NCBI RefSeq assembly: GCF_038049925.1
Contig: NZ_CP145809.1
Location: 1,364,001-1,428,000, forward strand
DNA: 64,000 bases
Source of the DNA: Georgenia sp. M64
GTDB taxonomy: Bacteria; Actinomycetota; Actinomycetes; Actinomycetales; Actinomycetaceae
Direction of reading: 5' to 3'
Translations under genes and position numbers: made by a program
Notes under the pieces: model-generated
Told to the model about the DNA's origin: nothing
The model's input: only the letters and a program-made list of their open reading frames with translations
Databases searched by the model: none
Part shown: one piece after another, positions 17,693 through 42,990 of the stretch
Numbering within the stretch: position 1 is the first letter of the stretch
Layout of the letters: each line of letters opens with the position of its first letter

Positions 17693-17743
17693 GACGAGGT
17701 TGCTCGTGTGGTCGTGGTCAGCAGCCATCTGAGCGACTTCGTC
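17693..17743. repeat. 51-bp palindromic element, copy A (full)
   Basis: Left arm GACGAGGTTGCTC, a 25-nt core containing TGGTCGTGGTCAGCAGCCA, and right arm GAGCGACTTCGTC. The arms pair at all 13 positions if two G-T pairs are allowed. First member of pair A/B in the convergent space between sixA and the M56 gene. Confidence 0.9.
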
Positions 17744-17796
17744 GGGGGCCGCGCCGCTTCGCCCTGTGGCGCGCCGCTTCGGGCGACGGCCTGCGC

Positions 17797-17847
17797 AACC
17801 GTTCTGCTCAGGTGGTCGTGATGAGCAGCCATCCGAGCAGGCTCGTC
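17797..17847. repeat. 51-bp palindromic element, copy B (left arm degenerate)
   Basis: Core TGGTCGTGATGAGCAGCCA with right arm GAGCAGGCTCGTC. The left arm AACCGTTCTGCTC keeps only the inner pairing. 53 bp after copy A; the spacer carries GCGCCGCTTCG twice. Confidence 0.9.
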
Positions 17848-17888
17848 ACGTGCTGGCGGCCCGAGATGCGCATCAGGCGGCGTCCGGC

Positions 17889-18989
17889 TCAGCAGGTGCC
17901 GGTCACCAGCACCGTGCCGTAGGGCACGACGACGTGCGCGACCACGGCGACGACCGCCGCCACGTAGGCGACCACGGCCGCCAACCCCCAGCGTGACGGC
18001 GGCGACGGCGGGGTCACGAGGCGGGCGGTGCGCCACGGGACGGCCCGGCCGGCCGCGTGGAGCATCGGCATGCCGGCCGGGCCTCGCTGCAGGTCGGGAT
18101 GACCTCCCAGGGCCAGCAGCGCCCCGGCCAGGGCGCGCGTGCCGGCCGCGCGGCGCGCGGCGTCGTCGGCGGCCATCTCGGCGTACCGGGCCGCCGACCG
18201 GTGCGCGTGGGCGACGAGCGGGACCCGGCCCAGGACCCGGGCCAGCGCGGCGAGCAGGCCGAGGACCGTGTGGTGGCGCTGGACGACGTGGGCGCGCTCG
18301 TGGCCGAGGACGGCATGGAGCTGCGGCGCGGTGAGGGCGTCGAGCCCGCCGCGGGTGAGCACCACCCCGCGCCGTCCGGGCAGCGCGTACGCAGCCGGTG
18401 CGTCGTCCTCGACGAGCCAGACGACGACCTCGTCCCCGGCCTCCGGCCGGGTTGCACCGTGCCGGGCTGAACTGCGCAGGGCGTCGCCGTGCAGGGCTGA
18501 GCCGTGCAGCGCCGTGCCGGGCAGCGCGTTCCTCTGCGGGGCGTCGCTGGGCAGGGCGTCGGCTCGTAGCGCTGTGCCGTCCAGGGCCGCGAGGTGCGCG
18601 TCGGCGGTGCGGCCCGCGCGGGCGAGGTCGATCACCGCCCGCCCCACCAGGGCGAGCGCCAGGACGGCGGGCACGAGGAGAAGGACGAAGACGGGGACGG
18701 CCGTGGTCGTGGTCGAAGGCGCTGGGCCGAAGGGGTTGGTGGCCACGAGGCACCTGCGGCAGACGTCGCCCACGGCCCCGGGCAGCGCCGGCCCGGTGAC
18801 GGCCCAGGCCAGCAGCGGGCCGAGAACGAGCAGTCCAGCCGTCCAGGCGAGCGCCGCGCCCGTCCACGCGGCCAGGCCCAGGCGCGGCCGAGCGCTGAAG
18901 GTCGGCGTCGGACGCCGGCGCAGCCGCGGCGCGAGGGCACCCACGCCGAGCAGCACCGCCAGGAGCACGGCGAGGACCGCGGCCGTCAT
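17889..18989 (-). CDS. M56 family (BlaR1-like) membrane metalloprotease
   Basis: A 366-residue polytopic membrane protein with the M56 zinc protease motif HERAH at residues 230-234 (AVLGHERAHVVQRH). Membrane helices lie at ~2-20, ~40-65, ~97-120 and near the C-terminus (~330-355). In BlaR1/MecR1 such proteases cleave the partner BlaI-type repressor. No penicillin-binding sensor domain is attached, so the signal is unknown. It overlaps the BlaI gene by 4 nt. Residues 135-179 are nine tandem five-residue repeats inserted just before the protease core. The start at 18989 is fixed by the overlap. Confidence 0.85.
   Translation of the reverse strand: MTAAVLAVLLAVLLGVGALAPRLRRRPTPTFSARPRLGLAAWTGAALAWTAGLLVLGPLLAWAVTGPALPGAVGDVCRRCLVATNPFGPAPSTTTTAVPVFVLLLVPAVLALALVGRAVIDLARAGRTADAHLAALDGTALRADALPSDAPQRNALPGTALHGSALHGDALRSSARHGATRPEAGDEVVVWLVEDDAPAAYALPGRRGVVLTRGGLDALTAPQLHAVLGHERAHVVQRHHTVLGLLAALARVLGRVPLVAHAHRSAARYAEMAADDAARRAAGTRALAGALLALGGHPDLQRGPAGMPMLHAAGRAVPWRTARLVTPPSPPSRWGLAAVVAYVAAVVAVVAHVVVPYGTVLVTGTC
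18453..18587 (-). repeat. 15-bp tandem repeat, nine units, inside the M56 gene
   Basis: Nine 15-bp units encode ALDGT, ALRAD, ALPSD, APQRN, ALPGT, ALHGS, ALHGD, ALRSS and ARHGA. The pattern (D/N/T/S)-A-L-x-x resembles pentapeptide repeats, but with D-A-L instead of A-D/N-L. Confidence 0.85.
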
Positions 18990-19396
18990 CGCCGCGGTGC
19001 CCGCGCGTCGTCGTCGGGCGCGTCGGGCACGTCGGGCACGTCGTCGAGGAGGCTGCGGAGGAGGTCGACGTCCTCGGGCGACATCCGCTCGACGAAGTGG
19101 AGGAACGACGCGGCCCGGTCGGGCGTGGCGGAGAACGTCTCCGCCATGAGCCCGCCGCAGTACTCGCTCCGGCTGGGGCCGTGACGGTAGGCCCAGGTGC
19201 GTCCTGCGGTGACCCGCTCGGCCATGCCCTTGCGCACGAGGTTGCCCAGGACCGTGGCCACGGTGGTGTACGCCAGACCCGTGGTGAGCCGCTCGAGCAC
19301 CGCCCGGGTGGTCATGGCCGCACCGGAGTCCCACAGGACCTCCATGACCTCGCGCTCGAGGCTGCCGAGCCGGGGGAGGGGCGCGAGCTCAGGCAT
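18986..19396 (-). CDS. BlaI/MecI/CopY family transcriptional repressor
   Basis: A 136-residue winged-helix repressor. LGSLEREVMEVLWDSGAAMTTRAVLERL and LAYTTVATVLGNLVRKGMAER form the DNA-binding domain (residues ~10-58) and match BlaI. The C-terminal part is for dimerisation and is the usual cleavage site of M56 partners. It overlaps the upstream membrane gene by 8 nt and the M56 gene by 4 nt. The TACTAC/GTAGTA palindrome at 19983-20001 between the divergent units is its likely operator, so it probably controls both directions. Confidence 0.88.
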   Translation of the reverse strand: MPELAPLPRLGSLEREVMEVLWDSGAAMTTRAVLERLTTGLAYTTVATVLGNLVRKGMAERVTAGRTWAYRHGPSRSEYCGGLMAETFSATPDRAASFLHFVERMSPEDVDLLRSLLDDVPDVPDAPDDDARAPRR

Positions 19397-19958
19397 GCTC
19401 GGCGGCCGTCGGGGACGGGGCGGCCGGGGCGGCGGCGGGCGCCGGGACCGGGCAGTAGACCTCGCCGCGCAGCCGGACCACCAGCGCCCCGGCCGTCAGG
19501 GCGAGCCCGGCCACTGCGAGCACCGGCTGGAAGGGGGCGAACCACGTGAGCGCACCGGTGTAGCCGAGGGCCAGCAGGGCGATCTTGTTGCAGACGGGGC
19601 ACCCCACGGCGAACCACGTGAGCACGCCCCCGGCCATCCCGGCCCGGCTCGGACCCTCGCCGGCGGGATCGGGTGCCGGTTGCGCGCGCCGCGGCCGGAC
19701 GTAGGTCGCGACGAGCATCCCGGCGACGAGCGACGTGAGGATCCACACGGGGTAGTTCCACCACACGACCGGGATCTCCCGGCCGAAGACGGGGTTGGGG
19801 ATGAGCACCGTCGGGATGCCGATGGCGAGCGCGACGGCGACGGCGGCGACCGCCGAGACGGCCCACCGGGCCGGCGTCCACGCGCGCAGCGCGGTCGCCG
19901 CGGTGCGCAGCGTGCCGGTGCGGGTGGGAAGGAGCGGGGTGGAGGTTCCGGGAGGCAT
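19389..19958 (-). CDS. membrane protein with intramembrane CPVC motif
   Basis: A 189-residue protein with about five membrane helices (~32-53, ~68-87, ~107-125, ~126-140, ~145-162). The dithiol CPVC is at residues 120-123 at the end of one helix (TWFAVGCPVCNKIALLALGYTGALTWFAPFQP). I do not recognise a named family. The CxxC motif and the divergent DsbA-like and CcdA genes suggest a role in moving reducing equivalents across the membrane; this is inference. First gene of the BlaI operon, with its start 4 nt from the first operator half. Confidence 0.65.
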   Translation of the reverse strand: MPPGTSTPLLPTRTGTLRTAATALRAWTPARWAVSAVAAVAVALAIGIPTVLIPNPVFGREIPVVWWNYPVWILTSLVAGMLVATYVRPRRAQPAPDPAGEGPSRAGMAGGVLTWFAVGCPVCNKIALLALGYTGALTWFAPFQPVLAVAGLALTAGALVVRLRGEVYCPVPAPAAAPAAPSPTAAEHA

Positions 19959-19962
19959 GCGT

Positions 19963-19981
19963 CTACTATGCCGGATAGAGG
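19963..19981. promoter_or_regulatory. imperfect second BlaI-type box
   Basis: CTACTATGCCGGATAGAGG resembles the perfect box that starts 20 bp later, with a weaker right half. Two boxes spaced by two helical turns would allow cooperative dimer binding. Confidence 0.45.
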
Positions 19982-19982
19982 T

Positions 19983-20001
19983 CTACTACGTCACGTAGTA
20001 G
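19983..20001. promoter_or_regulatory. BlaI-type operator, perfect palindrome
   Basis: CTACTACGTCACGTAGTAG has perfect 9-bp arms around one base. Known BlaI/MecI operators share the TACTA...TAGTA pattern. It lies in the 114-bp space between the divergent BlaI operon and the DsbA-like operon. Confidence 0.85.
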
Positions 20002-20072
20002 ATCGCCCTCACCACCGGGCCCGCCCTCGGCCCCCCCCGGACCTCCCCCCGTCACCTCCGAAGGAGACCCTC

Positions 20073-20807
20073 ATGCCCGCAGCGTCCGCCCGCCGGGTCC
20101 CGGCCTGGCTCGTCCCCGCCGCGATCGTCCTCGTCGCGCTCGTCCTGCTCGTCGTCTCCGTCGTCGGTGGCGACGACGAGGGTGCCGCCCAGCAGCCGGC
20201 CGCGACAGCGCCCTCCGACGCTCCGGTGGCCGACGTCGTCGAGCCCGAGCAGCAGACCTTGGAGATGGCGCGCCGGGAGGAGGGCGACGCGCTCGCCCAC
20301 GGACCGGTCGACGCCCCGGTGACGCTCGTCGTCTACAACGACTTCCAGTGCCCGTTCTGCGCCGTGTGGGCGAAGGACACCGAGCCGACGATGATGGAGT
20401 ACGCCGACGCCGGCGACCTCCGGATCGAGTGGCGCGACATCAACGCCTTCGGGCCGGTCTCGGTCCGCGCCGCGCAGGCTGCCTTCGCCGCGGGTCAGCA
20501 GGACGCCTACGTCGAGTACCACCACGCCCTCTTCGAGGGTGGGGAGAAGCGTCCCGCCGACGAGCTGACCGACGAGGCGCTCATCGCCCTCGCCGGCGAG
20601 CTCGGCCTCGACGTCGAGCGCTTCACCGCCGACCTGGACTCCCCGGAGGTCGCGGCCGGCGTCCAGGCGAACGTCGACGAGGCCGCCGCCATCGGCGTGT
20701 ACTCCACCCCCGCCTTCCTCGTCGGTGGCACCCCGATCCTCGGCGCCCAGCCCACCGAGGTGTTCGTGCGGGCCTACGAAGAGGCGCTCGCGGAGGCGCA
20801 GGGCTGA
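20073..20807 (+). CDS. DsbA-like membrane-anchored thioredoxin-fold protein
   Basis: A 244-residue protein with one N-terminal membrane anchor (~10-31), a low-complexity linker and an external DsbA/thioredoxin domain. The active-site dithiol is C93-P-F-C96 in VVYNDFQCPFCAVW, and the cis-Pro is in VYSTPAFLVGG. Such proteins oxidise or isomerise disulfides outside the membrane. GAAGGAG lies 8 nt before the ATG. It is followed 2 nt later by ccdA, which would supply electrons, and it shares the divergent promoter region with the BlaI operon. Confidence 0.88.
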   Translation: MPAASARRVPAWLVPAAIVLVALVLLVVSVVGGDDEGAAQQPAATAPSDAPVADVVEPEQQTLEMARREEGDALAHGPVDAPVTLVVYNDFQCPFCAVWAKDTEPTMMEYADAGDLRIEWRDINAFGPVSVRAAQAAFAAGQQDAYVEYHHALFEGGEKRPADELTDEALIALAGELGLDVERFTADLDSPEVAAGVQANVDEAAAIGVYSTPAFLVGGTPILGAQPTEVFVRAYEEALAEAQG

Positions 20808-20809
20808 GG

Positions 20810-21820
20810 GTGGAGATCAGCCTCCTCGCCGCCTTCCTCGGCGGTGTCCTGGCCCTCCTGAGCCCGTGCGGGGCGCTGCTGCTGCCGGCGTTCTTCGCCT
20901 CGACGCTGGGCGCCGGATCCCGCCTGTTCGCGCACGGCGCCGTCTTCTTCGTGGGCCTCTCGCTCACGCTCGTCCCGCTGGGACTGGGCGCGTCGTTCGT
21001 GGGGTCGCTCGTGACCACCGAACGTGACCTGCTCATCACGGTCGCGGGCTGGCTCATCGTCGTCTTCGGTATCGCCCAGATCCTCGGGTTCGGCTTCGAC
21101 CTCTCCCGGGTGCTCCCCGGGGCGCGGAGCATCCAGGCCACGGCGCCGCGGCGGACCGGGGTGACCCGGTCGTTCCTCCTCGGCACGGTCTCGGGGATCG
21201 CCGGCTTCTGCTCCGGTCCGATCCTCGGCGCCGTGCTCACCATGGCCGCGACCGAGGACGACCTCGTGGCCGCCGGCGGCCTGCTCGCCGTCTACGGCGC
21301 CGGGATGGTCGTGCCGCTGCTCGCCCTCGCGGCGGTGTGGGGACGACTCGGGGCGGCCGGGCGGGCGCGGCTGCGCGGCCGGGAGCTGGCCGTGGGTCCG
21401 TTGCGCCTGCACACCACCTCGGTGATCACCGGCGTCCTGCTCGTCGCCGTCGGCGTCGTCTTCCTCAGGACCAACGGCATGGCCGCCCTGCCCGAGCTCC
21501 TGCCCGCGGCGCTCCTCGCGCAGCTCCAGCGCGCGGTGCTCAGCGTCTCCGCCGCCGTGCCCGAGCAGGTGGTCATCGTCGTGGCCGCGCTCGCCGCGCT
21601 GACGGTGTGGTTCCTCCGGCGCCGGCGCGTGACCGAGGACGGCGACGAACCGGCCGGCGCGGCCGAGCCCGACGCCGCGGGGGAGCCCGTTGCCGCGGAG
21701 GAGCGCGACGCCGCGGAAGAGCCCGCTGCCGCAGGGGAGCCTGCTGCCCCGGGGGACCCCGTTGTCGCAGGGAGGCTCGACGCCCCGGCGGAGCCCGACG
21801 CCGCGAGGAGGCAGTCATGA
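20810..21820 (+). CDS. ccdA: CcdA/DsbD-family transmembrane electron carrier
   Basis: CcdA carries reducing equivalents from cytoplasmic thioredoxin across the membrane. The 336-residue protein has the two hallmark Cys sites LLSPCGALLLPAFFASTLG (Cys20) and GIAGFCSGPILGAVLTMAAT, and about six membrane helices followed by a seventh. Its C-terminal ~50 residues are encoded by an 18-bp tandem repeat, absent from typical CcdA. The GTG at 20810 follows the DsbA-like stop by 2 nt with GAGG overlapping that stop. The stop overlaps the lipoprotein start (ATGA). Confidence 0.88.
   Translation: MEISLLAAFLGGVLALLSPCGALLLPAFFASTLGAGSRLFAHGAVFFVGLSLTLVPLGLGASFVGSLVTTERDLLITVAGWLIVVFGIAQILGFGFDLSRVLPGARSIQATAPRRTGVTRSFLLGTVSGIAGFCSGPILGAVLTMAATEDDLVAAGGLLAVYGAGMVVPLLALAAVWGRLGAAGRARLRGRELAVGPLRLHTTSVITGVLLVAVGVVFLRTNGMAALPELLPAALLAQLQRAVLSVSAAVPEQVVIVVAALAALTVWFLRRRRVTEDGDEPAGAAEPDAAGEPVAAEERDAAEEPAAAGEPAAPGDPVVAGRLDAPAEPDAARRQS
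21665..21808 (+). repeat. 18-bp tandem repeat, eight units, ccdA 3' end
   Basis: Eight 18-bp units starting GAGCCCGACGCCGCGGGG encode repeats of E-P-x-A-A-(G/E). They form a soluble acidic Ala/Pro tail after the last membrane helix. Confidence 0.9.
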
Positions 21821-23082
21821 CGCGCGTCACCGGCCGGGTCGCGCTGCGCCGGGGCGGTGCCGGGGTCGTCCTGGTCCTCGCGGCGCTGGCCGGGTGCGCG
21901 GACACCGCCGACGACGTCGCACCGGTGAACCCCACGCCTGTCGTCGTCGGTGAGAGCGCCCCGACGGCGCCCGTCGGCGCGTCCCTGCCCCTGCCGCTGG
22001 CACCGTTCCGCATGGTCGAGCCCGGCTGGGACCAGGTGCCGGAGGAGCTCGACGGGACCTTCCTCGGCCTGGCCGAGCCCACCCCGGACGGCGATACGTC
22101 GGACGCCGACACCGCCGACACCGCCGACGCCGACACCGCCGACGCCGACACCGCCGACGGCGCCGCGCTGAGGTTCGTGGCCGCCGACGAGCAGGGAACG
22201 GTGCTGTGGGAGGCCGCCCGTCCGCCGTCGTGCACCGGCTTCGCCCTCACCCGCGCCGGGGACCGGGCCCTCGCCGTCCTCACCGACCTCGCGCCGACGG
22301 ACGACGCCGTGGCCGGCACCACCGCCACCGCCTACGACCTCACCACGGGCGAGCGGGTCTGGGGACCGGTCGAGGTGCCCGGGCCCCACCACGGTCCCGG
22401 GCTCGTGTTCTCCGCCGGGGCACCGCGGGCGACCGTGGGCGAGACCGGTCCCCGGGTGGTCCTCGACCCGGCGACGGGCGAGGTCCTCGCCGACGAGTCG
22501 GACGAGGCAGGCACCGGGGTCGTCGGTGAGTACGACGGGACGGTGCTCACGGCCGTGGACGGCGAGCTCGTCGCGACCGCCGGCGGTACGACGACGTGGC
22601 GGGTGCCGCTCGCCTCGCTCGGCCTCGACGGGGCGCCGACCGCCGTGGCCGGTGCCAGGCCGCCGCACGGCACCGCCCTCCTGGGTGCGCCGGGCGCCGA
22701 GACCGGTGCCCTCGTCGATCTCGCCGACGGTGCGGTCCTGGCCACCGACGTGGCCGACGCGCGCCGCGACCCCAGCTCCGGCGCGGTGGTCGCGCTCGGC
22801 GAGGAGCGCGTGACCGGTCTGCCGGCCACCGGGGAGCCGTGGGAGGTGCCGGTGACGGGCACCCGCCTCGCCGCGGCGGGGGGAGCACTGGTCTACCTGC
22901 GGGTCGGCGACGCCCTCCAGGTGCTCAACGCCACCACCGGCGCCGAGGCCCAGGCGTACGGCGAGGCAGGCTCGGCCGGTCTCGTCGTCCCCGTGCTGTT
23001 CTCGGCCGGCGGGGCCGCCGTGGTGCCCACGGAGACCGGGTACGGCCTCGTCACGACGGCGCCGGCGGGGGCGGAGGGCTGA
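21817..23082 (+). CDS. PQQ-like beta-propeller lipoprotein
   Basis: A 421-residue predicted lipoprotein. Residues 1-27 form a signal peptide ending in the lipobox LAALAGC. The rest is built of repeating blades of the kind YDLTTGERVWGPVEVPG and NATTGAEAQAYGE, typical of PQQ-like/WD-like propellers that bind protein partners. Residues ~96-113 are an Asp/Ala/Thr tandem repeat. The ATGA overlap with ccdA places it third in the BlaI-controlled operon. It may be the ligand sensor or an envelope client of the redox pair; function not known. Confidence 0.75.
   Translation: MTRVTGRVALRRGGAGVVLVLAALAGCADTADDVAPVNPTPVVVGESAPTAPVGASLPLPLAPFRMVEPGWDQVPEELDGTFLGLAEPTPDGDTSDADTADTADADTADADTADGAALRFVAADEQGTVLWEAARPPSCTGFALTRAGDRALAVLTDLAPTDDAVAGTTATAYDLTTGERVWGPVEVPGPHHGPGLVFSAGAPRATVGETGPRVVLDPATGEVLADESDEAGTGVVGEYDGTVLTAVDGELVATAGGTTTWRVPLASLGLDGAPTAVAGARPPHGTALLGAPGAETGALVDLADGAVLATDVADARRDPSSGAVVALGEERVTGLPATGEPWEVPVTGTRLAAAGGALVYLRVGDALQVLNATTGAEAQAYGEAGSAGLVVPVLFSAGGAAVVPTETGYGLVTTAPAGAEG
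22102..22155 (+). repeat. GACGCCGACACCGCC tandem repeat in the lipoprotein gene
   Basis: Three 15-bp units and one 9-bp partial unit encode an acidic D-A-D-T-A linker early in the propeller. Confidence 0.85.
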
Positions 23083-23095
23083 GCACGCCGCCGGT

Positions 23096-23146
23096 GACGA
23101 GCCTGCTCATGTGGTCGTGATCAGCAGCCATCCGAGCAGGTTCGTC
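23096..23146. repeat. 51-bp palindromic element, copy C (full)
   Basis: Left arm GACGAGCCTGCTC and right arm GAGCAGGTTCGTC pair over all 13 positions with one G-T. The core contains GGTCGTGATCAGCAGCCATC, with TGATCA at its centre. It lies 14 bp after the lipoprotein stop. Confidence 0.92.
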
Positions 23147-23157
23147 GGCTGACACGT

Positions 23158-23208
23158 CGTCAGGTTGCTCAGGTGGTCGTGATCAGCAGCCATCGGAGCG
23201 AACTCGTC
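23158..23208. repeat. 51-bp palindromic element, copy D (left arm degenerate)
   Basis: The core GGTCGTGATCAGCAGCCATC is identical to that of copy C. Right arm GAGCGAACTCGTC; the left arm CGTCAGGTTGCTC keeps only the inner pairing. It follows copy C after 11 bp and ends 28 bp from the serB stop. Confidence 0.9.
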
Positions 23209-23235
23209 ACGGCACAGCGTCCGCGCGGTGCGGGC

Positions 23236-24156
23236 TCAGCGCCCGAGCAGGCCCCACACGGCGTCGAGCCGGGGGAAGGTGACGGCGGCGTCCGCCTCCT
23301 CCTGCACCACCGGCTTGGCCCGGAAGGCCACCCCGAGCCCGGCCGCACCGAGCATGTCCAGGTCGTTGGCGCCGTCACCGACGGCGACGACGCGCTCGAG
23401 CGGTACGCCGTCGGCCGCGGCCCACCGGCGCAGGTGCGCCTCCTTCGCGGCCCGGTCGACCACCGGCCCGAGCGTGCGCCCGGTGAGGCGGCCGTCGCGC
23501 ACCTCGAGGGCGTTCGCCACCGCGTGGTCGATGCCGAGGCCGGCCCGCAGGGGCTCGACCACCTCGACGAACCCGCCCGAGACCACGCCGACCCGGCCGC
23601 CTGCGGCGTGCACCGCCTCGACGAGCTCGCGGGCGCCGGGGGTCAGCTCGACGGCGGCGCGCACGTCGGCGAGGACGGCCACGTCGAGCCCGGCGAGGGT
23701 GGCGACCCGCTCGCGCAGGCTGTTGGCGAAGTCGATCTCGCCGCGCATGGCGCGTTCGGTGACCGCGGCGACCTCCGTGCGGGTGCCCGCGTGCTCGGCG
23801 AGCAGCTCGATCACCTCGGCCGTGATGAGGGTGGAGTCGACGTCCATGACGAGCAGGCCCGGGCCGTCCTGGGCGAGCGAGCCCGTGGTCACGGCGACGT
23901 CGACGCCGAGCGCCGTCGCCGGCCCGACGAGCTCGGTGCGCAGCCGCCGCCCGACGGCGCCGGTGTCCCCACCGCCGGCGCGGAGCGAGGCCGTGACCGC
24001 GACGGCGAACCACCCGCCGCGCGAGGTCGTCGCGAGGGCGACGTCGTCGGCCACCGCGGCGACCAGCTCGCGCGCGTGCTCCACGAGCGAGACCGGCAGC
24101 GGCCGGGGCGAGACGAGGCCGACGCGCAGGGTGGGGCGGTCCGGGGAGACGTTCAC
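23236..24156 (-). CDS. serB: phosphoserine phosphatase
   Basis: Haloacid dehalogenase-fold phosphatase releasing L-serine from phosphoserine, the last step of serine synthesis. The 306-residue protein has an N-terminal ~95-residue regulatory region, then the nucleophile motif MDVDSTLI (D105, D107), GVVSGGF with the motif II Ser, and VAVGDGANDLDML (motif IV). Length and motifs fit SerB. GTG at 24156 is chosen because TAGGCT lies 7 nt upstream; the longer frame has no conserved sequence. Confidence 0.9.
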   Translation of the reverse strand: MNVSPDRPTLRVGLVSPRPLPVSLVEHARELVAAVADDVALATTSRGGWFAVAVTASLRAGGGDTGAVGRRLRTELVGPATALGVDVAVTTGSLAQDGPGLLVMDVDSTLITAEVIELLAEHAGTRTEVAAVTERAMRGEIDFANSLRERVATLAGLDVAVLADVRAAVELTPGARELVEAVHAAGGRVGVVSGGFVEVVEPLRAGLGIDHAVANALEVRDGRLTGRTLGPVVDRAAKEAHLRRWAAADGVPLERVVAVGDGANDLDMLGAAGLGVAFRAKPVVQEEADAAVTFPRLDAVWGLLGR

Positions 24157-24163
24157 GCCCGGC

Positions 24164-24169
24164 AGCCTA
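24164..24169 (-). promoter_or_regulatory. candidate leaderless -10 box (TAGGCT)
   Basis: Minus-strand TAGGCT is 7 nt before the serB GTG at 24156, with no ribosome site between. Confidence 0.5.
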
Positions 24170-24199
24170 CGGTCCGGCGCCGGAGCGGCGCCGGGGTGC

Positions 24200-25441: not shown

Positions 25442-25447
25442 GCCCGA

Positions 25448-36222: not shown

Positions 36223-36228
36223 CAGGAT
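36223..36228 (+). promoter_or_regulatory. candidate leaderless -10 box (CAGGAT)
   Basis: CAGGAT ends 6 nt before the ATG at 36235; only A2 and T6 of the TANNNT pattern match, so this is weaker than the other cases. Confidence 0.35.
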
Positions 36229-36234
36229 GACGGC

Positions 36235-37188
36235 ATGTACCCCGCGACCGAGCCCGATGACGCCGGCATGCTCGCCGTCGGCGACGGCCACGAGATCTTC
36301 TGGGAGACGTGCGGCAACCCCGCCGGCCGGCCCGTCGTCATGCTCCACGGCGGCCCCGGGTCCGGCTGTACGCCGGGCCTGCGGAGCTGGTTCGACCCGC
36401 AGGGGTACCGGATCGTCCTGCTCGACCAGCGCGGCGCGGGCCGCTCCACCCCCAGCGCGGGCGACGACGTCGCGGACCTCTCCACCAACACCACCGCCCA
36501 CCTCGTCGCCGACCTCGAGCGGCTCCGCGAGCACCTGGGCATCGGTACGTGGGTGGTCACCGGTGTCTCGTGGGGGACCACGCTGGCGCTCGCGTACGCG
36601 CAGGACCACCCGGACCGGGTCGACGCCCTCGTCCTCGTCTCCCCGGTGACGACCACCCACCGTGAGGTCGAGTGGCTCACCCGCGACATGGGCCGGATCT
36701 TCCCCGAGGAGTGGCAGACCTTCCGCGACGGTGCCGTGCCCGGCGTGGCGCCCGACGGCTCTGGCCTCGCGGCCGCCTACGGCAAGCTCCTGCACGACCC
36801 CGACCCGGCCGTGCGCGAGCGCGCCGCCCGGCAGTGGTGCGACTGGGAGGAGACCCACCCCGCGACCCACCCGGCCCACCGGCCCAACCCGCGCTTTGCC
36901 GACCCGCGGTTCCGGCTCGGGTTCGCCCGGCTCGTGACGCACTACTTCGCCCACGCCGCCTTCCTCGACGACGGCGCGCTGGTGCGCGGCATGACGCGCC
37001 TTGCCGGGATCCCCGGGGTGATCGTGACCGGCCGACTGGACATCTCCAGCCCGCCGGACGTCGCCTGGGCGCTGCACCGTGCCTGGCCCGGCAGCGAGCT
37101 CGTGCTGGTCGAGGGGGCCGGGCACGGGACGACCGCGGAGGCGATCGTCGCCGCGACGGACCGGTTCGCGGGACCGCCCGCGGGTTGA
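36235..37188 (+). CDS. pip: prolyl aminopeptidase-type alpha/beta hydrolase (S33)
   Basis: A 317-residue S33 peptidase-like hydrolase. It has the oxyanion motif HGGPGSG (~39), DQRGAGRSTP (~63), the nucleophile elbow GVSWGTTLAL (Ser ~112), the catalytic Asp in TGRLDISSPP and the His in EGAGHG. Length and motifs match bacterial prolyl iminopeptidases, which remove N-terminal Pro from peptides; other S33 hydrolases are possible. No ribosome site is evident. Confidence 0.85.
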   Translation: MYPATEPDDAGMLAVGDGHEIFWETCGNPAGRPVVMLHGGPGSGCTPGLRSWFDPQGYRIVLLDQRGAGRSTPSAGDDVADLSTNTTAHLVADLERLREHLGIGTWVVTGVSWGTTLALAYAQDHPDRVDALVLVSPVTTTHREVEWLTRDMGRIFPEEWQTFRDGAVPGVAPDGSGLAAAYGKLLHDPDPAVRERAARQWCDWEETHPATHPAHRPNPRFADPRFRLGFARLVTHYFAHAAFLDDGALVRGMTRLAGIPGVIVTGRLDISSPPDVAWALHRAWPGSELVLVEGAGHGTTAEAIVAATDRFAGPPAG

Positions 37189-37296
37189 GCGAGCCGGTGC
37201 TGCCGTCTGCCGCGTCCCGCTCGTCGGCGCGCCGTCCCCTCGTCAGCCGCTAGCCAGGTCTTCTCCCCGGCTCCGCTCGGTGGCACGCTGGATCCC

Positions 37297-37572
37297 ATGT
37301 GCCGCAACATCCACACCCTCCACAACTTCGCGCCGCCGGCCACCGAGGACGAGGTCCGCGCCGCCGCCCTGCAGTACGTGCGCAAGGTCGCCGGCATGAA
37401 CAAGCCCTCGCAGGCCAACGCGGCCGCGTTCGACCTGGCGGTGGAGCGGGTCGTCGCCGCCACGCGTGACCTCCTCGGCGACCTCGTCACCACCGCCCCG
37501 CCGAAGGACCGCGAGGTCGAGGCCGAGAAGGCGCGCGAGCGCAGCCGCCGCCGGTTCGCCGAGGTCGGCTGA
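37297..37572 (+). CDS. DUF2277 family protein
   Basis: A 91-residue protein that starts MCRNIHTLHNFAPPATEDEV and continues ALQYVRKVAGMNKPSQANAAAFDLAVERV, which is diagnostic of DUF2277. Function unknown; it resembles a small helical DNA- or protein-binding fold. A CACGCT box 7 nt before the ATG and no ribosome site suggest a leaderless message. Confidence 0.85.
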   Translation: MCRNIHTLHNFAPPATEDEVRAAALQYVRKVAGMNKPSQANAAAFDLAVERVVAATRDLLGDLVTTAPPKDREVEAEKARERSRRRFAEVG

Positions 37573-37644
37573 GCGGACGGGCTGCCCCGGATCTGACCGC
37601 CGCTGTTCGCCGACGTCGGTCGGGCCGCCGGTCCGCCCGGGACC

Positions 37645-38118
37645 TCAGACGCCGCCGGGATACCCGTGCTGGCGCCACGCCTCGTAGACGGCGATGGCCG
37701 CGGAGTTGGACAGGTTGAGGGAGCGCACGCCCGGCAGCATCGGGATGCGCAGCCGGCCGCTCACCCGTGGGTCGGCCAGCACCTCCGGCGGCAGGCCGGT
37801 CGGCTCGGGGCCGAAGAGGAGGGCGTCGCCCGGCTCGTAGGCGACGTCGGCGAAGCTGCGCGTCGCTGAGCCCGTGAAGGCGAGCACCCGCCCCGGGGCG
37901 ACCGCAGCCAGCGCGGCGTCGAGGCCCGGGTGGACGACGACGCGGGCCATGTCGTGGTAGTCCAGGCCCGCGCGTCGGAGCTGGGCGTCGGAGAGGTCGA
38001 AGCCGAGCGGCTCGACGAGGTGGAGGGTCGCGCCCGTGCAGGCGACCATCCGGATCGCGTTGCCGGTGTTGGGCGGGATGCGGGGCTCGTAGAAGACGAC
38101 GTGGAACACGCGCGTCAT
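37645..38118 (-). CDS. trmL: tRNA (cytidine/uridine-34-2'-O)-methyltransferase TrmL
   Basis: A 157-residue single-domain SPOUT methyltransferase that methylates the wobble ribose of certain leucine tRNAs. It begins FHVVFYEPRIPPNTGNAIRMVACTGATLHLVEPLGFDL and contains LLFGPEPTGLPPEVL and IPMLPGVRSLNLSNSAAIAVYEAWRQ, all TrmL-specific. The start at 38118 is preferred because the codons upstream lie in a tandem repeat. Confidence 0.92.
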   Translation of the reverse strand: MTRVFHVVFYEPRIPPNTGNAIRMVACTGATLHLVEPLGFDLSDAQLRRAGLDYHDMARVVVHPGLDAALAAVAPGRVLAFTGSATRSFADVAYEPGDALLFGPEPTGLPPEVLADPRVSGRLRIPMLPGVRSLNLSNSAAIAVYEAWRQHGYPGGV

Positions 38119-38133
38119 CGTCCCACCGCGGCC

Positions 38134-38218
38134 GCACCGCTCAGGTCGACGCACCGCTCAGGTTGACGCACCGCTCAGGTTGACGCACGGCTCACGTCGC
38201 CCCACCGCTCACGTCGCG
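38134..38218. repeat. 17-bp tandem repeat, five units
   Basis: GCACCGCTCAGGTTGAC-type units start at 38134, 38151, 38168, 38185 and 38202; the second and third are identical and the last two more diverged. They fill the space between the AAA gene stop and the trmL start. Confidence 0.9.
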
Positions 38219-38227
38219 GCGCCGCCC

Positions 38228-39364
38228 TCAGGGCCAGCGCCAGGCGGGCCGGTCCAGCGGACCGTCCTGGCCGACGACGACCGTCTCGCCCGCCGTCTTC
38301 GCCAGCTCCACGGTGAGCGGCTCCTCGCCCTCCTCCGCCACCGCACCGGCCAGGTCGGCGGAGTGGGTGACCACCACCACCTGGGTCGACCGGGCCGCCC
38401 GGGCGATGGTCCTAGCCAGCGCCGGCAGCAGCGAGGGGTGCATCGACTGCTCCGGCTCGTTGAGGACGACGAGCTGGGGCGGGCGTGGGGTGAGCAGGGC
38501 CGCGGTGACCATGAGGAAGCGCAGCGTGCCGTCGGAGAGCTCCGCGGCCCGCAGCGGTCGCAGGAGGCCCGGTTGGTGCAGGAGAACCTCGAAGGTGCCC
38601 TCCCGGACGGCGATCTCGAGCCGGGAGCCGAAGGCGTCGTCGAGCGCTGCGGTGAGGTCCCGGCGCCCGCCCATCTCGTCGATCGTGGCCAGGGCCGCGG
38701 CGAGGTCGGCGCCGTCGGGGGCGAGCGCCGAGGTCCGTGAGCCCGGCTGCGGCATCCGGGCCGGGGCGCCGGCGTCGGTGCGCAGGTGGTCGTAGAGGCG
38801 CCAGGAGCGCAGCTCCTCGCGCAGCGTCACCAGCTCGGGGGAGCGGCGGGGGTCCGCGACGACGTCGAGCATCGACTCGTGCGGTCGCGCGGTGGTCGTG
38901 AGCGTGGCCCAGCCGGTCTCGTCCCGGGTGCGCACCAGCGGCCCGCGACGCTCGGTGAGCACCGTGGCGGGCCGGGCGATCGCGCCGCCCCACACCGTCT
39001 CCTCCTTGACCTCCGGGTCGCGGGCGAACGCGCTGCGCTGGTCGGCCTGCGGCAGGCCGAGCTCGACGGCGTAGCCGGTGTCGTCCCCGGCTACGCCGAG
39101 CGCCACCCGCACCGGCCCGCGCCGGACGGTCCCCTCGGTGCCCCCGCCCTGCTCCGGACCCGCCCACAGCGCGGAGGCGAGACCACCCTCGCGAGCCAGG
39201 GCCGCCGGGGCACCCTCCCGCGCGGTGGCCGCCAGGAGGTGCAGCGCGCGGTAGAGGTTGGACTTGCCCGAGCCGTTGGCGCCGGTGACCACGGTGAGCG
39301 GACCCAGCGGCAGCACCACGTCGCGCAGCGACCGGTACCCGCGCACCGCGACGGTGGTGAGCAT
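38228..39364 (-). CDS. AAA family (RecF/OLD-like) ATPase
   Basis: A 378-residue SMC-like ATPase of the AAA_21 kind: Walker A VVTGANGSGKSN (25-36), signature ELSDGTLRFL (~272) and Walker B LVVLNEPEQSMHPSL (~295), followed by VVVVTHSADL. Such stand-alone proteins occur in defence systems and in DNA repair, and no nuclease domain is fused here. The TGATG overlap with the YbaK-type gene upstream shows coupling. It is the last gene of a three-gene operon. A defence role is not supported by the neighbours. Confidence 0.82.
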   Translation of the reverse strand: MLTTVAVRGYRSLRDVVLPLGPLTVVTGANGSGKSNLYRALHLLAATAREGAPAALAREGGLASALWAGPEQGGGTEGTVRRGPVRVALGVAGDDTGYAVELGLPQADQRSAFARDPEVKEETVWGGAIARPATVLTERRGPLVRTRDETGWATLTTTARPHESMLDVVADPRRSPELVTLREELRSWRLYDHLRTDAGAPARMPQPGSRTSALAPDGADLAAALATIDEMGGRRDLTAALDDAFGSRLEIAVREGTFEVLLHQPGLLRPLRAAELSDGTLRFLMVTAALLTPRPPQLVVLNEPEQSMHPSLLPALARTIARAARSTQVVVVTHSADLAGAVAEEGEEPLTVELAKTAGETVVVGQDGPLDRPAWRWP

Positions 39365-40050
39365 CAGGTCGTGGGGACCCCGAGGCCCTCGACCACCTCG
39401 ACGCCGGGGAAGCCCACGAGGACCTCACCGGGCAGGAGGAGCTTCGAGCCGCGGACGCCCGAGCCCACGATCGCCGGGCCGACGGCGACCCGCGCGTCCA
39501 CCAGTAGCCGCCACGACGGCGGCACCCCGATCGGGGTGATCGCCCCGTACTCCATCCCCGAGGCCTCGACGGCGCGCTCGGTCGGCCAGAACGAGGCCTT
39601 GCGCACGTCGAGCATGCGGCGGACGGTGGAGTTGACGTCGGCGCGCGTGCTCGCCCGCACGACGCACGCTGCGACCCGCTCCTCGCCGTCGCGTCGGCCC
39701 GCGACGAGGACGCAGTTGGCCGAGGCGCCCAGCGGGAGGCGGTACGCCTCGGTCATCGCCAGGGTGTCGGCGAGGTCGGGGTCGATCTCCGCGACGCGGA
39801 CCTCGGCGACGGCGTCCGGCTCGATCGCCGCGCGGGCGGCCAGCGCCGCGCGGACCGGCTCGGCGAGGAGGTCCGGCCTGTCGAGGGCCGGCACCCACAG
39901 GAGGGTGCCGAAGGCGACCGACTCCTCGCCGAGGACAGCCGTGGGCTCGGGTGCGTGCCCGGGCGAGAGCGCCTCGCCCGCGGCGAGGGAGGTCTCCGGC
40001 GAGGTCCGGGCCGCCGTGCTGTCGCCAGGCGGCGGGACGTCCGTGCTCAC
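39364..40050 (-). CDS. YbaK/EbsC-type aminoacyl-tRNA deacylase family protein
   Basis: A 228-residue protein with a YbaK/prolyl-tRNA-editing domain from about residue 70. ASANCVLVAGRRDGEERVAACVVRASTRADVNSTVRRMLDVRKASF and EYGAITPIGVPPSWRLLVDARV are typical, the latter matching the GxxxPxG active-site loop. Members hydrolyse mischarged tRNA. The N-terminal ~45 residues look disordered. GTG start overlaps the PEBP stop by 4 nt. Confidence 0.8.
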   Translation of the reverse strand: MSTDVPPPGDSTAARTSPETSLAAGEALSPGHAPEPTAVLGEESVAFGTLLWVPALDRPDLLAEPVRAALAARAAIEPDAVAEVRVAEIDPDLADTLAMTEAYRLPLGASANCVLVAGRRDGEERVAACVVRASTRADVNSTVRRMLDVRKASFWPTERAVEASGMEYGAITPIGVPPSWRLLVDARVAVGPAIVGSGVRGSKLLLPGEVLVGFPGVEVVEGLGVPTT

Positions 40051-40574
40051 CGCTGGTAGGTCGCCACGAGGATGCCCCGGGCGAGGGTGTGGAAGACGGT
40101 TCGGACCGCGACCTTCGCCGGCGAGTCGTCCTCCTCCAGCTCCATCGTCTCGGTGTCGAGGGCGTGGACGACGAAGTAGTAGCGGTGCTCGCGGTCCCCG
40201 GCGGGCGGCGCGGCGCCCGTGTACGTGTGGTCGCCGTCGTCGTTACGCAGGTGGAAGGCGGCCCCGGGCAGCATGAGGTCGGACTCGCCGGCACCCTGCT
40301 CGAGCTCGGTGGTGTCGGTGTCGAGGTCGAGCACGGTCCAGTGCCAGTAGCCCGACGGTGTGGGGGCGTCGGGGTCGAAGCAGGTGACGACGAAGCCGCG
40401 GGTCTCCGCCGGGAAGCCGGACCACGCCAGCTGCGGGGAGACGTTGCCGCCGCCCGCGGCGTGGAGGTCCGCCATCGGCTCGCCGTGCACGAGGTCGGTG
40501 GAGGTGACCGTGAAGGACGGCACCGCAGGAAGCTTGTCGTAGGGGTCCTGGGCGAGGGGGCGGTCGAGGTCCAC
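40047..40574 (-). CDS. YbhB/YbcL family Raf kinase inhibitor-like (PEBP) protein
   Basis: A 175-residue phosphatidylethanolamine-binding-fold protein: the PEBP motifs GGNVSPQLAWSGFPAETRGFVVTCFDPDAPTPSGYWHWTVLDL and TYTGAAPPAGDREHRYYFVVHALD are intact. The bacterial role is poorly known. GTG at 40574 has GGAGG 5 nt upstream; the overlapping ATG is in another frame. First gene of the PEBP-YbaK-AAA operon, divergent from the coiled-coil gene. A CGCGCGACGAC motif is repeated at ~40637 in its upstream region. Confidence 0.85.
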   Translation of the reverse strand: MDLDRPLAQDPYDKLPAVPSFTVTSTDLVHGEPMADLHAAGGGNVSPQLAWSGFPAETRGFVVTCFDPDAPTPSGYWHWTVLDLDTDTTELEQGAGESDLMLPGAAFHLRNDDGDHTYTGAAPPAGDREHRYYFVVHALDTETMELEEDDSPAKVAVRTVFHTLARGILVATYQR

Positions 40575-40753
40575 TTCATCCTCCGGGAGTCGGCGACGGC
40601 GTCGGTCACAACCTACGGCCTGCACGGGCCGGACCGCGCGACGACCGCGCGACGACCGCGCGAAGAGGGCACGATCGGTGCGGCAGGCGCCGGACGGCGG
40701 GCGTGTCCAGGCAGTAGCGTGTGCCCGACACCCTGGGACCTGGGAGGACAACG

Positions 40754-42598
40754 GTGGCTGACGTCGACCACGGAGCCGCTCCGGCCGGCTGGTACCCCGA
40801 CCCCGAGGACGCCGCGTTCCTGCGACGGTGGGACGGGTACTCGTGGACCGACGAGCGCCTGCCCGCGACCCGCGCCGCGCGCCGCTCCCTCCGCGCAGGT
40901 CGTGCCGCCGCATCTGCCGCCGAGGCCCCTGCCACCGTCGTCCACGCCGATCCGGACCCCGAGCGGCTGCGCGAGGATGCGCGGGCCGAGGCCGAGCGGC
41001 TGCGCGAGGAGGCCCGGGCTGATGCGGACAGGATCCGGTCCGAGGCGCGGGCCGAGGCCGAACGGGTTCGCGCCGAGCTCGCCGAGGCCGAGGAGGAGCT
41101 GTCGGCGGTCCGGACCGGGCTCGACCAGGGCCGGGACCAGCTCGCGGCGAGCAAGGGTGAGCTGAAGACTCGGCAGGCACGGCTCGCGGCGCAGCAGGAG
41201 GAGATCGCGGCCGGGCGCGCCGAGCTCGAGCGCCAGCGCGCCGAGCTCGAGGCCGGCCGCGCCGAGATGGCCGCGATCGAGGCCGAGGCCGCACGCGCGG
41301 CCGACCTCTCCCGGGCCGAGCTCGCCCACGAGCTCGACACGCGGCGGGCGGCCCTGGCACAGGAGGAGCAGCGCAGCCGGGCCGAGCTGGCTCGAGAGAT
41401 CGAGACGGGCCGGGCCGAGCTCGACCGGCAGATCCAGAGCGGGCGCGCCGCGCTGGCCGAGGAGGAGCGGACCCGGCTCTCGGCGCTCGACGAGGAGGAG
41501 GAGCGCCGTCGCGGAGCGCTGGACGCGGAGGAGCGGCGCCGACGTACCGGCCTCGAGGAGGAGGCACGTGCGCACCTGACCGAGCTCGCCGACCGGGAGG
41601 CGGCCGCCGCGGCAGCCGTCGCCGCGCGGGAGTCCGAGCTCGCCGGGCGCGAGAGCGCCGCCGCGGAGGAGATCGCGGCCGGACGTGCCGACCTCGACGC
41701 ACGCCGGGCCGAGCTCGTCGCCCGGGAGGCTGCCGTCGGCGAGGAGCTCGCCGCACGGGTGGCCCGGGTTCAGGAGCAGGAGGCCGCAGCAGCCCACGAG
41801 CTGACGCAGCGGCAGGCCGAGCTGGCCGAGCTGACTCGCTCGGCCGAGGAGGCTGCCCGGCTGGTCCACGACCGTGAGGACGAGATCGCCCGCCTGGAGG
41901 AGGAGAGCCGGCGGCTCGTCGGGGCACGCGAGGCGGAGCTGGCCCAGCTGGCCGACCGGAGCGAGCGGCTGGGCGCCGAGGTTGAGGCGCGCCGCGCCGA
42001 GCTCGCCGGACTCGAGGAGCAGATCGCGACGTCCCGCGAGGCGCTGGTGGACCTCGGCGAGCGGGTCCGGCTTCAGGAGACCGGCCTGTACGACTACCAC
42101 CACCCGGCCGAGGACTCGGCCCGCCTCACCGCCCGCCTGGCGACGCTGCGCAAGGCCATCGTCGAGATGCTGCGCGACGGCGGCGCCATCACCGCGACGA
42201 GCTCGTTCAAGGTCGGGCACTCCGCGAGCAAGGGCCGCCAGATCGTCGAGGAGATCACCCAGCTCGGCCTGCGGGCGTACAACGCCGAGGCGGAGAACGC
42301 CCTGCGCACGGCGACGGTCGGGTCGATCGACGGGGCCCTGACCCGACTGCTGCGGGCGCGGGACGCCGTCGCCAAGCACGGCGAGCCGTTCGGGGTGGCG
42401 ATCACGGACCAGTACCACGCGCTGCGCGTGCAGGAGGTCGAGCTGGCCGCCGAGCACCGCCGGCACCCGGAGCCGGTCCCGGCGCAGCAGCCGGACGCGG
42501 TCCGGCAGTACCAGCCGTACAACGAGGGGGCGGCGCGCGCCTGGTCGGCCGAGGGCGTGCCCGGCCCGTACCCCCGCGGCGTGGGTGAGCTGTCGTGA
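40754..42598 (+). CDS. DUF2510 - long coiled coil - DUF4041 protein
   Basis: A 614-residue protein. Residues ~10-35 (AGWYPDPEDAAFLRRWDGYSWTDE) are a DUF2510 domain, a short actinobacterial module. Residues ~60-445 are an almost unbroken Ala/Glu/Arg coiled coil. Residues ~445-570 (LQETGLYDYHHPAEDSARL...IVEEITQLGLRAYNAEAENAL) are DUF4041, which in phages and islands is usually followed by a T5orf172/GIY-YIG nuclease. No nuclease follows here. GTG at 40754 has GGGAGG 6 nt upstream; a TAGCGT box lies at 40715. It is coupled (GTGA) to a small membrane protein gene. Confidence 0.82.
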   Translation: MADVDHGAAPAGWYPDPEDAAFLRRWDGYSWTDERLPATRAARRSLRAGRAAASAAEAPATVVHADPDPERLREDARAEAERLREEARADADRIRSEARAEAERVRAELAEAEEELSAVRTGLDQGRDQLAASKGELKTRQARLAAQQEEIAAGRAELERQRAELEAGRAEMAAIEAEAARAADLSRAELAHELDTRRAALAQEEQRSRAELAREIETGRAELDRQIQSGRAALAEEERTRLSALDEEEERRRGALDAEERRRRTGLEEEARAHLTELADREAAAAAAVAARESELAGRESAAAEEIAAGRADLDARRAELVAREAAVGEELAARVARVQEQEAAAAHELTQRQAELAELTRSAEEAARLVHDREDEIARLEEESRRLVGAREAELAQLADRSERLGAEVEARRAELAGLEEQIATSREALVDLGERVRLQETGLYDYHHPAEDSARLTARLATLRKAIVEMLRDGGAITATSSFKVGHSASKGRQIVEEITQLGLRAYNAEAENALRTATVGSIDGALTRLLRARDAVAKHGEPFGVAITDQYHALRVQEVELAAEHRRHPEPVPAQQPDAVRQYQPYNEGAARAWSAEGVPGPYPRGVGELS

Positions 42599-42780
42599 CC
42601 GACCTTCCGCCGCCCTCGCCCCGCGACCGGGTGGACGTGCCCGAGGGCGGCTCGTCACTCCCGCCCCCGGCGACGGCGGACCGTGTGGAGCTGGACTCCT
42701 CCCGGTCGCGCGTGCTCCCGTGGCTGGTGGCCTCGGCGCTCCTCGCGCTCGCGGTCCTGGTCTTCTTCCTCCTGGGCTGA
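42595..42780 (+). CDS. small tail-anchored membrane protein
   Basis: A 61-residue protein whose last ~20 residues (VLPWLVASALLALAVLVFFLLG) form one membrane helix; the first ~38 are hydrophilic and Pro-rich. GTG start overlaps the stop of the coiled-coil gene (GTGA), so it is translated with it and could anchor that protein to the membrane. No family recognised. The stop codon lies inside the left arm of a hairpin. Confidence 0.65.
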   Translation: MTDLPPPSPRDRVDVPEGGSSLPPPATADRVELDSSRSRVLPWLVASALLALAVLVFFLLG

Positions 42781-42821
42781 TCCGGCTGGGCGATCTGCTG
42801 GTCCCGCCGGGCCGGATCAGC
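42776..42821. terminator. 11-bp perfect inverted repeat over a stop codon
   Basis: GCTGATCCGGC (42776-42786) and GCCGGATCAGC (42811-42821) pair perfectly around a 24-nt loop that itself has GGCG/CGCC. It includes the TGA of the small membrane gene and precedes repeat pair E/F. Confidence 0.6.
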
Positions 42822-42856
42822 CTGGCTTGTGTCTGTCTGATGTGCACCAGGACCAC

Positions 42857-42907
42857 GACGAGTCTGCTCGTCTGGTTGTGGACCGCGACCATCTGAGCAA
42901 CCTCGTC
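42857..42907. repeat. 51-bp palindromic element, copy E (full)
   Basis: Left arm GACGAGTCTGCTC and right arm GAGCAACCTCGTC pair at 11 of 13 positions. The core is TGGTTGTGGACCGCGACCA, a diverged version of that in A-D. First of pair E/F, in the 378-bp space 42781-43158 before imuA. Confidence 0.88.
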
Positions 42908-42939
42908 CGGTGGTGAACCGACGGTGCCACGGGTGGACG

Positions 42940-42990
42940 CACCGAGTCGCTCATCTGGTCGTGGATCGCGACCATCTGCGCAACCTCGTC
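42940..42990. repeat. 51-bp palindromic element, copy F (left arm degenerate)
   Basis: The core TGGTCGTGGATCGCGACCA contains a perfect inner TGGTCG/CGACCA hairpin. Right arm GCGCAACCTCGTC; left arm CACCGAGTCGCTC has lost the outer pairing. 32 bp after copy E. Confidence 0.88.

What the first reader, a model, noticed from the sequence alone, without database searches (positions are those of the whole stretch)
17693..42990. Paired 51-bp nested palindromic elements with compensatory stem changes
Six copies (17693, 17797, 23096, 23158, 42857, 42940) occur in this window, always as two direct copies 62-104 bp apart and always just after a plus-strand gene end. Each has 13-nt arms around a 25-nt core with TGGTCGTGATCAGCAGCCA or a variant. 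In all three loci the first copy keeps a full GACGAG...GTC stem, while the second has lost the outer left arm. Between copies A and C, arm positions 7 and 8 change from G-C and T-A to C-G and C-G, so both sides changed together. That is the mark of selection on a fold. Possible roles: transcript 3' ends, RNA stability, DNA gyrase or nucleoid sites (BIME-like), or a small mobile element.
Basis: seen in the sequence. Interest (0 to 1): 0.8.

Follow-up and report, generated by a model that had tools for sequence, protein, structure and literature searches.

The report
Dispersed palindromes partnered with a nuclease
The six hairpin-shaped repeats belong to a scattered family of DNA palindromes that sit mostly at gene ends in this bacterium, and such families go together with a gene for a nuclease-like protein that is itself often flanked by the same kind of palindrome, which suggests a little-known kind of bacterial mobile repeat.

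Summary
The six copies are real and sit where stated. They belong to a family of about 51-nt near-palindromes (22-bp arms, 7-nt loop): 25 intergenic sites in 17 loci of this 4.18-Mb genome, enriched between convergent genes. Covariation is absent among ten own copies but strong in 65 copies from seven genomes. Other genera carry the same architecture with other arm sequences ('dialects').

The lead lies outside the window: an own pair stands upstream of a gene encoding an AbiEi-like domain fused to a DUF559 endonuclease-fold domain, and two palindromes flank its homologue in a congener (G005). By one criterion, 22 of 45 such genes are flanked by a palindrome, against 15 of 322 control genes (4 of 27 in the controls from many genomes). 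Palindromes picked only because they flank such genes prove to be dispersed families of that genome (up to 12, 17, 21 and 22 places, flanking copies included). The own genome has no RAYT transposase.

Best reading: REP-like repeats whose cognate enzyme is a DUF559 nuclease instead of a tyrosine transposase. The gene association is shown; mobilisation is inferred. A terminator role is possible (inferred). The papers searched say nothing on this pairing.

The parts
17693..17743 (+). palindromic element, pair 1 copy 1 (asymmetric CAGCCA type)
   Evidence: RNA fold z -5.34; between convergent called genes ending 17583 (+) and 17889 (-); R1 E=7.4e-18, but the copy is in the model
17797..17847 (+). 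palindromic element, pair 1 copy 2 (outer left arm degenerate)
   Evidence: 84% identical in G006 while the DNA 5' of the pair is poorly alignable; fold z -2.49
23096..23146 (+). palindromic element, pair 2 copy 1
   Evidence: RNA fold z -6.79; 13 nt after the + gene ending 23082; 88% identical in G006
23158..23208 (+). palindromic element, pair 2 copy 2 (outer left arm degenerate)
   Evidence: same 62-nt spacing in G006; fold z -2.09
42857..42907 (+). palindromic element, pair 3 copy 1
   Evidence: RNA fold z -4.89; pair and spacer align with own 3494522 and 3503479
42940..42990 (+). palindromic element, pair 3 copy 2 (outer left arm shifted)
   Evidence: 83-nt spacing as in G006 and two other own loci; fold z -2.52
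42908..42939 (+). spacer of pair 3, alignable with the spacers of two other own pairs
   Evidence: gapped alignment; without gaps only 9 of 32 positions agree with either, because of a one-base offset; an own pair (3503479) matches the G006 pair over 138 bp at 84%

Best explanation
The six copies are members of a dispersed, non-coding palindromic repeat family that works like REP elements. Its partner is not a RAYT tyrosine transposase but a protein with an AbiEi-like N-terminus and a DUF559 (endonuclease-fold) C-terminus. Shown: the repeat family, its gene-end bias, covariation across genomes, lineage- and gene-specific dialects, and the excess of palindromes beside DUF559 genes. Inferred: the protein recognises its cognate palindrome, as a folded single strand, a cruciform or a duplex inverted repeat, and nicks or cuts it, and repair or replication then copies the repeat into new, tolerated places at gene ends. 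There the repeats may also act as two-way transcript-end hairpins, which would explain why convergent gaps tolerate them (inferred). Pairs 83-84 nt apart look like a composite unit copied as a whole (inferred).
For: R1, built from 10 copies that do not include them, found a pair upstream of the own DUF559 gene (1121717 E=5.6e-5, 1121801 E=4.2e-8) and two palindromes beside the G005 homologue (308507, 309657), before that gene was noticed. One criterion for all: 22 of 45 DUF559 genes flanked, against 11 of 295 own-genome genes and 4 of 27 genes at DeaD loci of 20 genomes (pooled odds ratio 19.6, p=1e-13). Against the DeaD-loci genes alone: odds ratio 5.5, p=0.005; upstream 14 of 45 against 0 of 27, p=6e-4. 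Out-of-sample test: 13 palindromes taken from DUF559 flanks and sought in 8 genomes gave, flanking copies included, 12 places in G015, and in the cut list 17 in G005, 21 and 22 for two G133 types, 4 in G002, 4 in G021, 4 in G136, 3 in G003, each type in its own genome with one cross hit listed. The four G133 paralogues have four different palindromes. A Tsukamurella record has inverted copies (38 of 41 positions alike) on both sides of its DUF559 gene and 6 places in 3 records of that strain. Candidate active-site residues E205, D237 and E248 are kept in 30 of 30 aligned homologues, D250 in 29; PDB 3hrl 'Endonuclease-Like Protein' E=1.3e-4; AbiEi profile E=6.5e-16. No RAYT (PF01797) in the own genome. 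The gene has other neighbours in six congeners than in the own genome.
Against: 23 of 45 DUF559 genes show no palindrome by the criterion; the own gene is one of them, because its asymmetric pair fails the threshold. The criterion was set after a first look, and most controls come from the own genome. Downstream alone the excess over DeaD-loci genes is not significant (12 of 45 against 4 of 27, p=0.38). Some flanking types have no listed dispersed copy: own second gene, G133c and G021b 1 place each, G133a and G003a only their 2 flanks. At the one own-G006 site difference resolved, about 100 bp differ and no target duplication is visible. Protein and palindrome similarity correlate modestly and are confounded by species (Spearman 0.30, 10 of 2000 permutations). 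The Tsukamurella palindromes were found by eye; the hairpin finder missed them. No transposition, binding or cleavage was observed.
Confidence: 0.6

Rival explanations
1. The palindromes are transcript-end hairpins (two-way terminators without a T tract) kept by selection; the link with DUF559 genes is incidental.
For: 8 of 17 own loci are convergent against 12.8% expected from placement (p=6e-4), 2 of 17 divergent against 40% (p=0.012). Ordinary hairpins show a similar bias: 12 of 38 convergent, 19 of 125 tandem, 2 of 58 divergent gaps. Downstream of deaD, 10 of 20 other genomes have unrelated hairpins in the place where 5 have a family member or variant (relatedness judged by eye).
Against: Does not explain genome-specific families found from DUF559 flanks or palindromes upstream of those genes (14 of 45 against 4 of 322). 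At deaD in G006 and G015 an ordinary hairpin stands beside the element. Own elements are 60% G+C against 73% for intergenic DNA.
Confidence: 0.21
2. The palindromes are operators: the AbiEi-like domain represses its own gene and a regulon through them.
For: AbiEi-like N-terminus; palindromes upstream of 14 of 45 DUF559 genes. That AbiEi proteins bind inverted repeats in their own promoter is recalled.
Against: 8 of 17 own loci are convergent gaps, which hold no promoter of either neighbour, and only 2 are divergent. 12 of 45 genes have the palindrome downstream. The 7 tandem loci do not tell.
Confidence: 0.08
3. The palindromes are MITE-like relics of an ordinary insertion sequence, and DUF559 genes are frequent cargo or neighbours in variable regions.
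For: A pair unit of about 138 bp is shared between loci; sites vary between species.
Against: No clean target duplication at the one site difference resolved. That MITE ends are conserved outermost is recalled; here the inner TGGTC core is conserved and the outer arms vary. Four DUF559 paralogues of one genome have four different palindromes. No search for insertion sequences was run.
Confidence: 0.1

Closest known systems
REP / REPIN elements with RAYT transposases (GTAG class, BIMEs)
   Same: Short dispersed palindromes at gene ends, often grouped, lineage-specific sequences, copies flanking the gene of a candidate enzyme (compare PMC3733652; abstract and passages seen).
   Different: About 51 nt against 20-40; the window pairs are direct, whereas that paper finds head-tail dimers absent or rare in most families; no RAYT in the own genome; the partner has a DUF559 and an AbiEi-like domain.
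CGTC-tagged REPs
   Same: Dispersed palindromes without a RAYT partner; 7 of 10 own copies in A3 end in CGTC.
   Different: CGTC REPs have 8-9 bp stems and were reported in 5 phyla, not Actinobacteria (PMC3733652, passages seen); most G007 copies and both G015 copies do not end in CGTC.
Untagged REP-like sequences of Mycobacterium tuberculosis
   Same: REP-like palindromes in an actinobacterium; PMC3733652 mentions them in one passage.
   Different: Not compared here; no DUF559 link is mentioned in the passages seen.
AbiEi antitoxin of AbiE toxin-antitoxin systems
   Same: N-terminal similarity (PADLOC model, E=6.5e-16); Pfam AbiEi_4 only below its cut-off.
   Different: Fused to DUF559. No search for an AbiEii toxin gene was run.
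DUF559 endonuclease-like proteins (PDB 3hrl)
   Same: DUF559 E=2e-10; 3hrl E=1.3e-4.
   Different: No linked palindromes in the papers searched.

Membership tests
REP-RAYT (IS200/IS605-like Y1 transposase) system | RAYT gene (PF01797) in the genome | tested here: not met
   0 matches in the own genome; the control rings in 5 of 14 genomes. Not tested in other genomes.
REP-RAYT (IS200/IS605-like Y1 transposase) system | Dispersed extragenic palindromes biased to gene ends | tested here: met
   25 intergenic sites in 17 loci, after dropping 2 of 27 places inside called genes; 8 of 17 convergent
REP-RAYT (IS200/IS605-like Y1 transposase) system | GTAG-type tag beside the stem | not tested
   no tag search was run
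REP-RAYT (IS200/IS605-like Y1 transposase) system | Enzyme gene flanked by the repeats | tested here: met
   met for DUF559 genes, not for a RAYT: 22 of 45 against 15 of 322; 4 of 27 in controls from many genomes
Intrinsic terminator | Stem followed by a T tract | tested here: not met
   none in the 15 nt after any of the six window copies; other copies not scored
Intrinsic terminator | Ends transcripts | not testable with these tools
   needs Term-seq
MITE of an insertion sequence | Target-site duplication at insertions | tested here: inconclusive
   one site difference resolved (2404742), about 100 bp longer in own, no clean duplication
Structured RNA family | Match to an Rfam model | tested here: not met
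   0 matches in the window; only three tRNAs in six DUF559 loci
Structured RNA family | G-U kept over A-C on one strand | tested here: inconclusive
   35 G-T against 21 A-C in 19 asymmetric copies, 37 against 47 in 46 symmetric ones, positions 20 and 21 left out

The most novel reading that the evidence does not exclude
A class of bacterial repeat-mobilising system: AbiEi-DUF559 nucleases, each with a private palindrome that flanks its gene and has been copied to gene ends across the genome, an independent counterpart of REP-RAYT built on another nuclease fold and found in several families of Actinomycetes, Tsukamurella included.
Probability: 0.45. Interest if true: 0.9.

Novelty: new variant of a known kind. 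Interest (0 to 1): 0.78.

Why it matters
Some REP-like repeats (for example CGTC REPs, PMC3733652 abstract) apparently lack a dedicated transposase. A gene family whose flanks predict, out of sample, which palindrome is dispersed in which genome offers a candidate enzyme for such repeats in Actinobacteria and makes the question directly testable. It would also suggest a role for DUF559 proteins, which Pfam lists as of unknown function.

Tried and rejected
Helical phasing of pair spacing (62, 83, 104 nt): rejected, because 104 is 84 in the G006 orthologue. RAYT partner: absent from the own genome. Known RNA family: none. RNA-strand selection: inconclusive. Selection on a fold from own copies alone: not supported. 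Own-G006 orthologous elements: 15 compared, 2 with length differences misaligned and left out; in the other 13, 3 pairs changed on both sides and kept pairing, 12 changed on one side and kept pairing, 37 changed on one side at pairs unpaired in one or both, 1 changed on both sides unpaired; and elements are not more alike than their flanks in every case (1275670: 0.80 against 0.94 and 0.89). A class-wide search with a fixed inner-core pattern gave 32 of 394 genomes (control pattern in 4) and was not used as evidence. R2 outside the genus: 7 of 8 places above 35 bits that were read are intergenic (one, in G314, lies inside a called gene); of 24 weaker ones read, 18 lie inside called genes. Rows dropped: 2 of 27 own places inside called genes (1224900, 4074817); 65 of 77 places aligned in A4 (7 left out, 5 more); 1 of 46 DUF559 loci had no gene called (L263, which shows same-type palindromes on both sides). 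Three weak own R2 hits (1897203, 1048635, 25117) were not examined.
Full report
Observation. The six copies are present at the stated places. Each copy is a 51-nt near-palindrome with partners i and 52-i. First copies fold as RNA at z -5.34, -6.79 and -4.89; second copies at -2.49, -2.09 and -2.52. Sites 1 and 2 lie between convergent genes (histidine phosphatase family with peptidase M48; a protein without Pfam match with a HAD hydrolase), site 3 after a + ORF and before a + gene.

Family in the genome. A covariance model of ten own copies (R1) finds 27 places at E<=1, the ten included; 2 lie inside called genes and were dropped, leaving 25 intergenic sites in 17 loci: 10 single, 6 pairs, 1 triple. 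Gene calls come from a script of my own trained on codon usage. Loci: 8 convergent, 7 tandem, 2 divergent. In a 20 x 20 kb sample, random 51-mers in intergenic gaps would fall 12.8%, 47% and 40%; convergent excess p=6e-4. Own elements are 60% G+C, intergenic DNA 73%.

Covariation. With ten own copies there is no excess over shuffles. With 65 of 77 places from seven genomes (six of the genus and G015 of another genus), 83.3% of cells pair against 73.8% in shuffles, 17 of 22 pairs have changes on both sides, and 185 cells are changed on both sides against 79.5 (sd 6.9), 0 of 500 shuffles reaching this. The copies were collected with a structure model, which leans this way, relatedness is not removed by the shuffles, and palindromes can be restored by template switching (recalled); so this shows upkeep of the palindrome, not an RNA function.

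Evolution. At orthologous loci in G006 several elements stand out from diverging flanks, others do not. Downstream of deaD a family member occurs in the own genome, G006, G001, G003 and G015, and a variant in G005; ten of the other genomes have unrelated hairpins there, and in five none or only weak ones were found. One own element (2404742) has no counterpart in G006.

Dialects. A genus-wide model (R2) in 297 genomes of the order gave 47 with matches at E<=0.001, the own included. Of 8 places above 35 bits outside the genus that were read, 7 are intergenic palindromes of the same architecture, with an inner TGGTC/GACCA or close variant but other arms; further copies with the same arms were seen in G133, G205, G136, G266 and G180. 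Of 24 weaker places read, 18 lie inside called genes.

The partner. Comparing the genes beside elements pointed to one family: the gene beside the own pair 1121717/1121801, and the G005 gene between elements 308507 and 309657. Other shared neighbours, such as deaD, reflect orthologous loci. The protein carries DUF559 (E=2e-10), resembles PDB 3hrl 'Endonuclease-Like Protein' over that domain, and has an AbiEi-like N-terminus (E=6.5e-16, PADLOC model; Pfam AbiEi_4 only below cut-off). In 30 aligned homologues (of 46 loci) E205, D237 and E248 are in all 30, D250 in 29 and H255 in 28.

Test 1. 20 genomes were searched with this protein; 19 had matches, 48 in all, 46 loci after joining the three G006 pieces. 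In 45 loci with a called gene, 22 have a hairpin of 36-72 nt, score at least 13 and at most 70% G+C within 400 bp of intergenic flank: 14 upstream, 12 downstream, 4 both. Controls: 11 of 295 genes of the own sample, 4 of 27 genes at DeaD loci; pooled odds ratio 19.6, p=1e-13. Against the 27 DeaD-loci genes alone, which come from many genomes, the odds ratio is 5.5 (p=0.005); upstream 14 of 45 against 0 of 27 (p=6e-4); downstream 12 of 45 against 4 of 27 (p=0.38). I had seen a first listing before setting the criterion. It misses the own asymmetric pair and the G005 upstream copy.

Test 2. Thirteen palindromes chosen only for lying beside DUF559 genes were sought in eight genomes. Distinct places counted by hand in the printed list, flanking copies included: G015 12 (all 24 rows printed); G005 second gene 17; G133b 21; G133d 22; G002 4; G021a 4, two of them flanks; G136 4; G003b 3; G003a 2, both flanks; G133a 2, both flanks; G133c 1; G021b 1; own second gene 1. 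The list was cut, so numbers other than G015's are lower bounds and weak cross hits may be unlisted. One cross hit was listed, of the G002 type in G003. Twelve fetched loci were read for context: they are 11 distinct places, 5 of them the flanking copies and 6 dispersed; none lies inside a called gene, and the 6 are 3 convergent and 3 tandem.

Named example. A Tsukamurella tyrosinosolvens record (NZ_LR134454.1) has a DUF559 gene (30.9% identity to the own protein) with inverted copies of a 41-nt palindrome on both sides, 38 of 41 positions alike. They were seen by eye in the printed flanks; the hairpin finder missed them. The palindrome occurs at 6 places in 3 records of that strain; two further places were inspected, one between convergent genes and one in a divergent gap. 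Both flanking copies fold as DNA at z -6.0 and -5.3. That this is another order than the window's is likely but was not established.

Mobility of the gene. In G001, G002, G003, G004 (fragment), G005 and G007 the gene lies between the same two neighbours, which differ from those in the own genome. In G006 the gene is interrupted by about 1.4 kb of inserted DNA and its upstream element is cut short, yet elements persist elsewhere in G006.

Literature. Searches for DUF559 with palindrom, with repeat and transpos, and with actinobacteria and endonuclease listed nothing relevant; further listings on REP, RAYT, Vsr and intergenic palindromes were seen. [quoted passage not shown] the word Actinobacteria does not occur in its main text, but one passage mentions untagged REP-like sequences in M. 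tuberculosis. The library lacks most subscription papers.

Verdict. Works like REP-RAYT; not a member, since the own genome has no RAYT. The enzyme role of the DUF559 protein is an inference from gene linkage, private dialects and conserved candidate catalytic residues.

Noticed in passing
window 43504-44163 and downstream (+): Pair 3 ends 513 nt before a gene that looks, from recall, like imuA' of an imuA'-imuB-dnaE2 mutagenesis cluster; the 219-aa protein had no Pfam match.
   Followed up: no
window 17743-17796: The spacer of pair 1 holds a near-repeat of about 20 bp that accounts for the 104-nt spacing (84 in G006).
   Followed up: partly
L288 (G006:C1:2565299-2570641): In G006 the DUF559 gene is interrupted by inserted DNA and its upstream palindrome is cut short; the inserted genes were not identified.
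   Followed up: partly
L287 (G000:C1:4154858-4158706): A second, distant DUF559 gene of the own genome has a different palindrome 61 nt downstream; only that one place was listed in the genome.
   Followed up: partly
L268, L279, L290, L291 (G133): Four DUF559 paralogues in one genome, each with a different flanking palindrome; two of the four types have more than 20 listed places.
   Followed up: partly
L147 (G006), downstream of deaD: A 26-bp ordinary hairpin stands directly after the family element, so the element is not the only candidate terminator there.
   Followed up: no
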